Shown here in pieces: positions 13,968 through 14,296 of a stretch of 37,282 nt of DNA. Under the pieces are notes generated by a model, which saw only the letters and a program-made list of their open reading frames with translations, had not been told where the DNA came from and made no database searches. Position numbers and translations under genes: made by a program. Location: contig ONBQ01000041.1 in the NCBI GenBank assembly GCA_900316145.1, positions 1 through 37,282 on the forward strand, written 5' to 3'. The DNA comes from an uncultured Eubacteriales bacterium. GTDB taxonomy: Bacteria; Bacillota; Clostridia; Lachnospirales; Bianqueaceae. Numbering within the stretch: position 1 is the stretch's first letter; every line of letters begins with the position of its first letter.

Positions 13968-13996
13968 TTGACGATGGAGATATTCATGAGTATAAT
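13968..13996 (+). promoter_or_regulatory. Promoter for rpsU
   Basis: TTGACG (13968-13973) and a perfect TATAAT (13991-13996) are spaced 17 bp apart, 41 nt after yajC. Transcription should begin near 14003-14005, exactly where the first helix of the predicted leader structure begins. Confidence 0.8.
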
Positions 13997-14003
13997 ATAT
14001 TTT

Positions 14004-14070
14004 AGTGCTTATCATATTTGGCCCCTAAGGTAGTAGGCACAATCTGTAACTGAGGGGAGGGTGGAGTAGA
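14004..14070 (+). promoter_or_regulatory. Structured rpsU leader, candidate pseudoknot over the Shine-Dalgarno
   Basis: Two crossing helices can be drawn in the 66-nt leader. Helix 1 pairs GTGCTTAT (14005-14012) with GTAGGCAC (14033-14040), 8 bp including two G-U pairs. Helix 2 pairs CCCCT (14022-14026), in the loop of helix 1, with AGGGG (14053-14057), which overlaps the purine-rich ribosome binding site. The arrangement is an H-type pseudoknot with loops of 9, 6 and 12 nt. It could allow autoregulation by S21 or another ligand; that function is inference only. Confidence 0.45.
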
Positions 14071-14247
14071 ATGTCTAACGTAGTCGTCAAAGAGAATGAG
14101 TCCCTGGATAGCGCGCTTCGTCGCTTTAAGAGAAATTGCGCCAAAGCTGGTATCATGCAGGAAGTTCGTAAAAGAGAGCACTATGAGAAGCCCAGCGTAA
14201 AGCGTAAGAAGAAGTCTGAGGCTGCCAGAAAGAGAAAGTACAATTAA
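14071..14247 (+). CDS. rpsU: 30S ribosomal protein S21 (bS21)
   Basis: This is a short gene of 58 codons. The protein begins [20 protein letters not shown] and continues with the typical [20 protein letters not shown], ending in a lysine/arginine-rich tail (AARKRKYN). bS21 is a small basic protein of the 30S platform near the anti-Shine-Dalgarno region. The length and the sequence match the family throughout. The gene has its own consensus promoter and is followed by a strong terminator, so it is a monocistronic unit with possible readthrough into topB. The ribosome binding site is the GGGAGG part of a long purine run at 14053-14061. Confidence 0.96.
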
Positions 14248-14262
14248 ACAACAAACAAATGT

Positions 14263-14296
14263 AAAGCCTTAGTCCCTGTGCGGGACTAAGGCTTTT
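14263..14296 (+). terminator. Intrinsic terminator after rpsU
   Basis: A 14-bp perfect stem (AAAGCCTTAGTCCC at 14263-14276 with its complement at 14282-14295) has a 5-nt loop and ends in TTTT. The topB start codon lies 32 nt after the T-run, with a ribosome binding site (GAAAGGAG) in between and no space for a promoter. Confidence 0.85.

What the first reader, a model, noticed from the sequence alone, without database searches (positions are those of the whole stretch)
14004..14070. Candidate H-type pseudoknot in the rpsU leader covering the Shine-Dalgarno
The transcript should begin at about 14004, right at an 8-bp helix (14005-14012 with 14033-14040). The loop CCCCT (14022-14026) matches AGGGG (14053-14057) in the ribosome binding region, making crossing helices with sterically reasonable loops. 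Ribosomal protein leaders often use this kind of fold for autoregulation. I do not recall a described bS21 leader of this form in Clostridia.
Basis: partly seen in the sequence, partly recalled or inferred. Interest (0 to 1): 0.6.

Follow-up and report, generated by a model that had tools for sequence, protein, structure and literature searches.

The report
Conserved pseudoknot leader before rpsU
The start of the messenger RNA for ribosomal protein S21 in these gut bacteria carries a conserved knotted fold that ties into its own ribosome-binding site, probably to let the protein control how much of itself is made; no such control RNA for this protein was found in the RNA-family database or in the papers I could search.

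Summary
By itself it is only modestly above chance. Relatives make it real. The rpsU leader belongs to a conserved, rpsU-specific RNA element in at least eight family-level groups of one order of Clostridia (inferred: Lachnospirales). A covariance model finds one hit per genome, in 37 of 196 genomes of the order; the hit lies directly upstream of rpsU in all 27 genomes where I have that gene's position. The element is an H-type pseudoknot. P1 is GUGC/GCAC at the transcript's 5' end, extended to 5-8 bp in some families. P2 crosses it and ends in the Shine-Dalgarno purine run (CCC...CAGUUG/CAACUG...GGG in Lachnospiraceae, CUCCG/CGGAG in two other families, CCCCU/AGGGG here). P2 covaries. The P1 core is almost invariant; only its extension varies. 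A second leader type replaces P1 by a local 5' hairpin. The window is a weak, divergent member: it lost the upper half of P2, and a nested hairpin is predicted to compete. No Rfam match and no description in searchable papers. The likeliest function is translational feedback by bS21. It is untested. bS21 is known to bind an SD/anti-SD-like duplex in OLE RNA, and rpsU here has an unusually strong SD.

The parts
13968..13996 (+). sigma-70-type promoter of rpsU (TTGACG, 17 nt, TATAAT)
   Evidence: 11 of 12 matches; the same promoter stands at the same place in relatives
14004..14004 (+). probable transcription start
   Evidence: inferred from distance to the -10 box; not mapped
14005..14012 (+). 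P1 5' strand GUGCUUAU (core GUGC 14005-14008 nearly invariant; 14005-14010 kept in sister species)
14022..14026 (+). P2 5' strand CCCCU (anti-SD-like pyrimidine strand)
14033..14040 (+). P1 3' strand GUAGGCAC (core GCAC 14037-14040)
14040..14052 (+). conserved CAAUCUGUAACUG: loop 3 plus the 3' strand of the upper P2 helix of relatives; its 5' partner CAGUUG is lost in this genus (at most AGU 14032-14034 with ACU 14049-14051 remains)
14053..14057 (+). P2 3' strand AGGGG, entering the Shine-Dalgarno purine run
14056..14066 (+). extended Shine-Dalgarno run GGAGGGUGGAG; calculated pairing with the 16S 3' tail -12.1 kcal/mol
14071..14247 (+). rpsU, ribosomal protein bS21 (58 aa)
   Evidence: PF01165 E 3e-25
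14263..14295 (.). inverted repeat after rpsU, probable terminator; rpsU appears monocistronic
   Evidence: scored on the minus strand; use on the plus strand is inferred

Best explanation
This is a ribosomal-protein leader for bS21: a 5'-UTR element of about 65 nt that folds into an H-type pseudoknot, P1 at the 5' end and P2 ending in the SD run, and regulates rpsU translation. Most likely step by step: (1) rpsU is transcribed alone from its own promoter [sequence evidence]; (2) the leader folds so that a pyrimidine strand (CCC, CUCC, CCCC) pairs with the upstream half of the extended SD, making an intramolecular SD/anti-SD-like duplex at the junction of the pseudoknot [comparative evidence]; (3) surplus bS21, which is loosely held on the ribosome and binds such a duplex in OLE RNA, binds and stabilises the knot [inferred]; (4) 30S access to the SD is then blocked and bS21 synthesis falls [inferred]. 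No terminator lies in the short leader, so control would be of translation, not attenuation.
For: Specific to rpsU: one hit per genome in 37 of 196 genomes of the order, directly upstream of rpsU in all 27 where the gene's position is known. Held-out model R2, built without the window's family, gives as its only hit in each of 7 genomes of that family, including the window's (E 0.82) and the sister species (E 0.0016), the leader at rpsU (rpsU position known for 6 of the 7). P2 covaries: 92.3% of cells paired and 4 pairs with changes on both sides in A1, slid controls 26-48%; type II leaders 98.3% paired; SD-proximal P2 is CCCCU/AGGGG here, CUCCG/CGGAG in f2 and f24, CCCUC/GAGGG in f14. Strand swaps between families weaken P1 (-8.1 to -7.3 kcal/mol, p 0.010) and P2 (-12.2 to -10.1, p 0.032). 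A 5' hairpin replaces P1 in type II leaders (mean z -3.2). Literature: bS21 binds an SD/ASD-mimic duplex in OLE RNA P6 through two conserved G-C pairs (PMC12054373), and bS21 controls its own rpsU in Flavobacterium (PMC9976891).
Against: No direct evidence of bS21 binding or regulation. The P1 core GUGC/GCAC is almost invariant, so covariation supports only its extension. In the window the nested MFE (-16.3 kcal/mol) beats the two pseudoknot helices (-8.5 and -7.4 before any loop or pseudoknot penalty). The window lacks the upper half of P2. Some genera of the window's own family (L089, L093, L101, L102) and other families of the order (f5, f11, f16, f17, f19, f23) lack the fold, so it is not essential for rpsU. 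The shuffles do not correct for relatedness, and rests on 8 families.
Confidence: 0.5

Rival explanations
1. Regulation by the ribosome rather than by free bS21: the extended SD favours 30S subunits lacking bS21, as in Flavobacterium johnsoniae, and the pseudoknot sets the threshold or the position for binding (standby or platform element).
For: rpsU has the strongest SD of 7 genes in the window (-12.1 against -10.2 for the next) and relatives reach -13.4 kcal/mol, near the -13 criterion used for Bacteroidota. Extended SDs also occur in families of the order without the knot.
Against: The Flavobacterium mechanism depends on sequestration of the anti-SD by Bacteroidia-type bS21, bS18 and bS6; that is not known in Clostridia, where SD use is normal. 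It does not need a leader fold.
Confidence: 0.18
2. The leader fold is constitutive: a 5'-terminal helix that protects the mRNA from 5' exonucleolytic decay plus a helix that sets translation rate, without any ligand.
For: A 5'-terminal helix is kept in both leader types despite quite different sequences.
Against: Conserved loop bases (A-rich CAA after P1, AACUG) and one-gene specificity are more than a generic stabiliser needs.
Confidence: 0.2
3. In this genome the working structure is a nested hairpin that sequesters both SD segments (14012-14026 with 14056-14070), not the pseudoknot.
For: It is the MFE structure (-16.3 kcal/mol).
Against: Its lower stem does not look conserved even in the sister species L003 (my reading of the sequence), whereas P1 and CCCCU/AGGGG are kept there. 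It excludes P1, which relatives keep.
Confidence: 0.1
4. Chance pairing in a purine- and pyrimidine-rich leader.
For: Single-sequence significance is modest (p 0.006-0.045; nested fold z 0.28).
Against: Conservation, P2 covariation, held-out detection and one-gene specificity.
Confidence: 0.02

Closest known systems
Autogenous ribosomal-protein leaders (for example rpsO/S15, whose E. coli operator is a pseudoknot at the SD)
   Same: 5' UTR of a single r-protein gene, conserved fold specific to that gene, pseudoknot that reaches the SD
   Different: No leader for bS21 is in Rfam 15 by these searches or in the papers searched; the pairing pattern is different; regulation is not shown. The S15 comparison is from memory, not tested.
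rpsU of Flavobacterium and other Bacteroidota (PMC9976891)
   Same: Very strong SD on rpsU; bS21 as the proposed sensor
   Different: There the element is the SD alone, with an occluded anti-SD; no pseudoknot is described
OLE RNA P6, a bS21 binding site (PMC12054373)
   Same: A duplex resembling SD paired with anti-SD, with essential G-C pairs
   Different: A large non-coding RNA, not a leader; strand order is purine first there, pyrimidine first here; binding to the leader is untested

Membership tests
H-type RNA pseudoknot | Two helices in ABAB order with loops long enough to cross | tested here: met
   in the window loop 1 is 9 nt, loop 2 is 6 nt and loop 3 is 12 nt with the 8-bp P1
H-type RNA pseudoknot | Both helices supported by covariation | tested here: inconclusive
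   P2 yes; P1 only in its extension, core invariant; between-family swap p 0.010 and 0.032
H-type RNA pseudoknot | Helices form together in the RNA | not testable with these tools
   needs probing; nested MFE competes in the window
Ribosomal-protein leader | Conserved structured element in the 5' UTR of one r-protein gene | tested here: met
   one hit per genome, 37 genomes, all 27 with known rpsU position adjacent to it
Ribosomal-protein leader | Encoded protein binds the leader and represses | not testable with these tools
Any Rfam 15 family | Covariance model match | tested here: not met
   no match to the leader in the window or in 26 other loci
Flavobacterium-type rpsU control | rpsU SD pairing below -13 kcal/mol | tested here: inconclusive
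   window -12.1, relatives -12.1 to -13.4; energies computed here with a simple duplex model
OLE P6-like bS21 site | bS21 binding dependent on G-C pairs in an SD/ASD-like duplex | not testable with these tools
   a similar duplex is present (CCC/GGG, CUCCG/CGGAG); binding unknown

The most novel reading that the evidence does not exclude
A previously undescribed leader class in which bS21 recognises an intramolecular SD/anti-SD duplex in its own mRNA, held in a pseudoknot that has switched during evolution between a knotted and an in-line 5' helix. It would give bS21 a feedback mechanism of its own in Clostridia and the same recognition logic as in OLE RNA.
Probability: 0.35. Interest if true: 0.75.

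Novelty: new member of a known kind. Interest (0 to 1): 0.56.

Why it matters
bS21 is a late-joining, exchangeable ribosomal protein that affects which mRNAs are translated, and how its level is set outside Bacteroidota is open. A conserved leader in a very common gut order makes that directly testable, adds a candidate RNA family to Rfam, and offers a second natural RNA in which to study how bS21 reads an SD/anti-SD duplex.

Tried and rejected
Nested folding of the leader gave no signal (z 0.28). Rfam at gathering and relaxed thresholds gave no match to the leader; the weak Spy491738 hit upstream is noise (18.2 bits against a 91-bit cut-off). Transcription attenuation was rejected: no terminator in the leader. 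A class-wide search found the element only within the order: 5 of 341 genomes, all of the same order. Model R2 did not detect the f2, f24 and f4 leaders, so their relation rests on the shared architecture, P1 sequence and gene context. The automatic parser mis-assigned P1 in a few sequences (for example L056, L069, L071), and MAFFT misplaced a few rows of A1 (L085, L119, L032, L029, L040); these lower the counts of paired cells. The parser failed on L084, L085, L087, L088, L119 and L190. The 224-candidate paper of Weinberg 2017 and the Francisella bS21 paper are not in the library, so an earlier mention there is not excluded.

Full report
OBSERVATION. The pairings are present as stated. The gene at 14071-14247 is bS21, with its own promoter and an inverted repeat after it, flanked by yajC upstream and a topoisomerase gene downstream. 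On one sequence the evidence is modest: nested folding z 0.28; crossing-helix score p 0.045; the exact two-helix pattern in 0.6% of shuffles with the SD kept.

RELATIVES. bS21 was used to fetch 80 named Lachnospiraceae loci. It was also searched in 146 genomes of the window's order, from which 80 upstream stretches were fetched. The leaders share one plan: promoter, then AGUGC almost at the predicted start, an A/U-rich stretch, ACCC (or CUCC), CAGUUG or similar, GCACAA, CAACUG, then GAGGGAGG before rpsU.

STRUCTURE. GUGC pairs with GCAC (P1), and CCC...CAGUUG pairs with CAACUG..GGG (P2). The order of strands makes this an H-type pseudoknot. On the 41-sequence alignment A1, 92.3% of cells pair, against 26-48% when the partner is slid, and four P2 pairs have changes on both sides. 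P1 pairs in 95.7% of cells, but its core hardly varies, so conservation there is not proof of pairing. The P1 extension does vary consistently: UUUA/UAAA in f2 and f24, UUAU/GUAG in the window, UUUU/AGAA in f8; on alignment A2 (f2, f24, window, sister) P1 is 97.8% paired, with two pairs changed on both sides. Swapping strands between families weakens both helices (8 families, so p 0.010 and 0.032 are only moderate).

THE WINDOW WITHIN THE FAMILY. The window and its sister species L003 keep P1 (8 and 6 bp) and CCCCU/AGGGG while the loops differ. The upper P2 strand CAGUUG is lost, although its partner AACUG remains. A model built without the window's family (R2) has a single match in each of 7 genomes of that family, at the rpsU leader in the 6 whose rpsU position is known; for the window's own genome that single match is 14001-14058 at E 0.82, weak in score but in the right place. 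Other genera of the same family have partly lost the fold (L089, L093, L101, L102). The nested alternative (-16.3 kcal/mol) is calculated to be better than the knot here, so for this genome the knot is likely but not sure.

DISTRIBUTION AND SPECIFICITY. Model R1 has one match in each of 37 of 196 genomes of the order and no second match in any; in the 27 of these whose rpsU position is known the match ends about 10-16 bases before rpsU. R1 was built from some of these sequences, so the point is the absence of matches elsewhere. Across the class it was found only within the order (5 of 341). The pseudoknot architecture was seen in groups f1, f2, f6, f8, f14, f21, f22 and f24; it was not seen in f5, f11, f16, f17, f19 and f23.

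TWO LEADER TYPES. A sizeable part of Lachnospiraceae (for example Butyrivibrio, L083) has instead a local hairpin at the 5' end followed by AAUAACCC and P2 with CAGUC/GACUG. P2 pairs in 98.3% of cells on alignment A4. The 5' hairpin is strongly selected, with mean z -3.2 over 25 leaders and quite different stems (leaders are related, so the combined score overstates). A 5'-terminal helix plus an SD-touching P2 is therefore the common denominator, knotted in one type and in line in the other. In Oribacterium (L034, L038) the leader is reduced to ACCC-GAA-GGGAGGU, which suggests that the pairing of CCC with the SD is the core.

MECHANISM. Shown: a conserved, rpsU-specific fold that overlaps the SD run, an unusually strong SD, and no attenuator. 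Inferred: bS21 is the ligand and represses. bS21 is lost and exchanged readily, controls rpsU in Flavobacterium (PMC9976891), and binds a duplex resembling SD with anti-SD in OLE RNA through two conserved G-C pairs (PMC12054373). The leader presents such a duplex, with the pyrimidine strand first. I give about 0.5 to feedback by bS21 on this leader, 0.2 to a constitutive stabiliser or rate setter, and 0.18 to sensing by the ribosome itself.

NOVELTY. No Rfam 15 family matches the leader. A 2023 review of extraribosomal functions describes no structured bS21 leader in the passages found, and the candidate-RNA papers that could be searched do not mention rpsU or S21. Two relevant papers were not held and supplements could not be read. 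It is a new candidate member of a known kind, the ribosomal-protein leaders.

Noticed in passing
14056-14066: rpsU has the strongest calculated SD/anti-SD pairing of seven genes examined in the window (-12.1 kcal/mol); relatives reach -13.4, close to the criterion used for bS21 autoregulation in Bacteroidota.
   Followed up: partly
L050, L064, L068, L083, L118 and others, 5' end of the leader: Many Lachnospiraceae rpsU leaders carry a local 5'-terminal hairpin in place of the knotted P1, with very different stem sequences.
   Followed up: partly
L034:564-600 and L038:564-600 (Oribacterium): The leader is reduced to a tiny ACCC-GAA-GGGAGGU hairpin at the SD.
   Followed up: no
L115:130-220 and L120:32-121: Group f8 leaders carry an extra hairpin inside the P2 loop whose stem differs on both sides between the two genomes (GGCAAA/UUUGCC against GGUAG/CUACC).
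   Followed up: no
L088:2021-2249: A T-box leader (RF00230, 122 bits, E 3.5e-27) lies downstream of rpsU in a genome of the window's family.
   Followed up: no
14263-14295: Strong inverted repeat AAAGCCTTAGTCCC/GGGACTAAGGCTTT between rpsU and the topoisomerase gene, probably a terminator.
   Followed up: no
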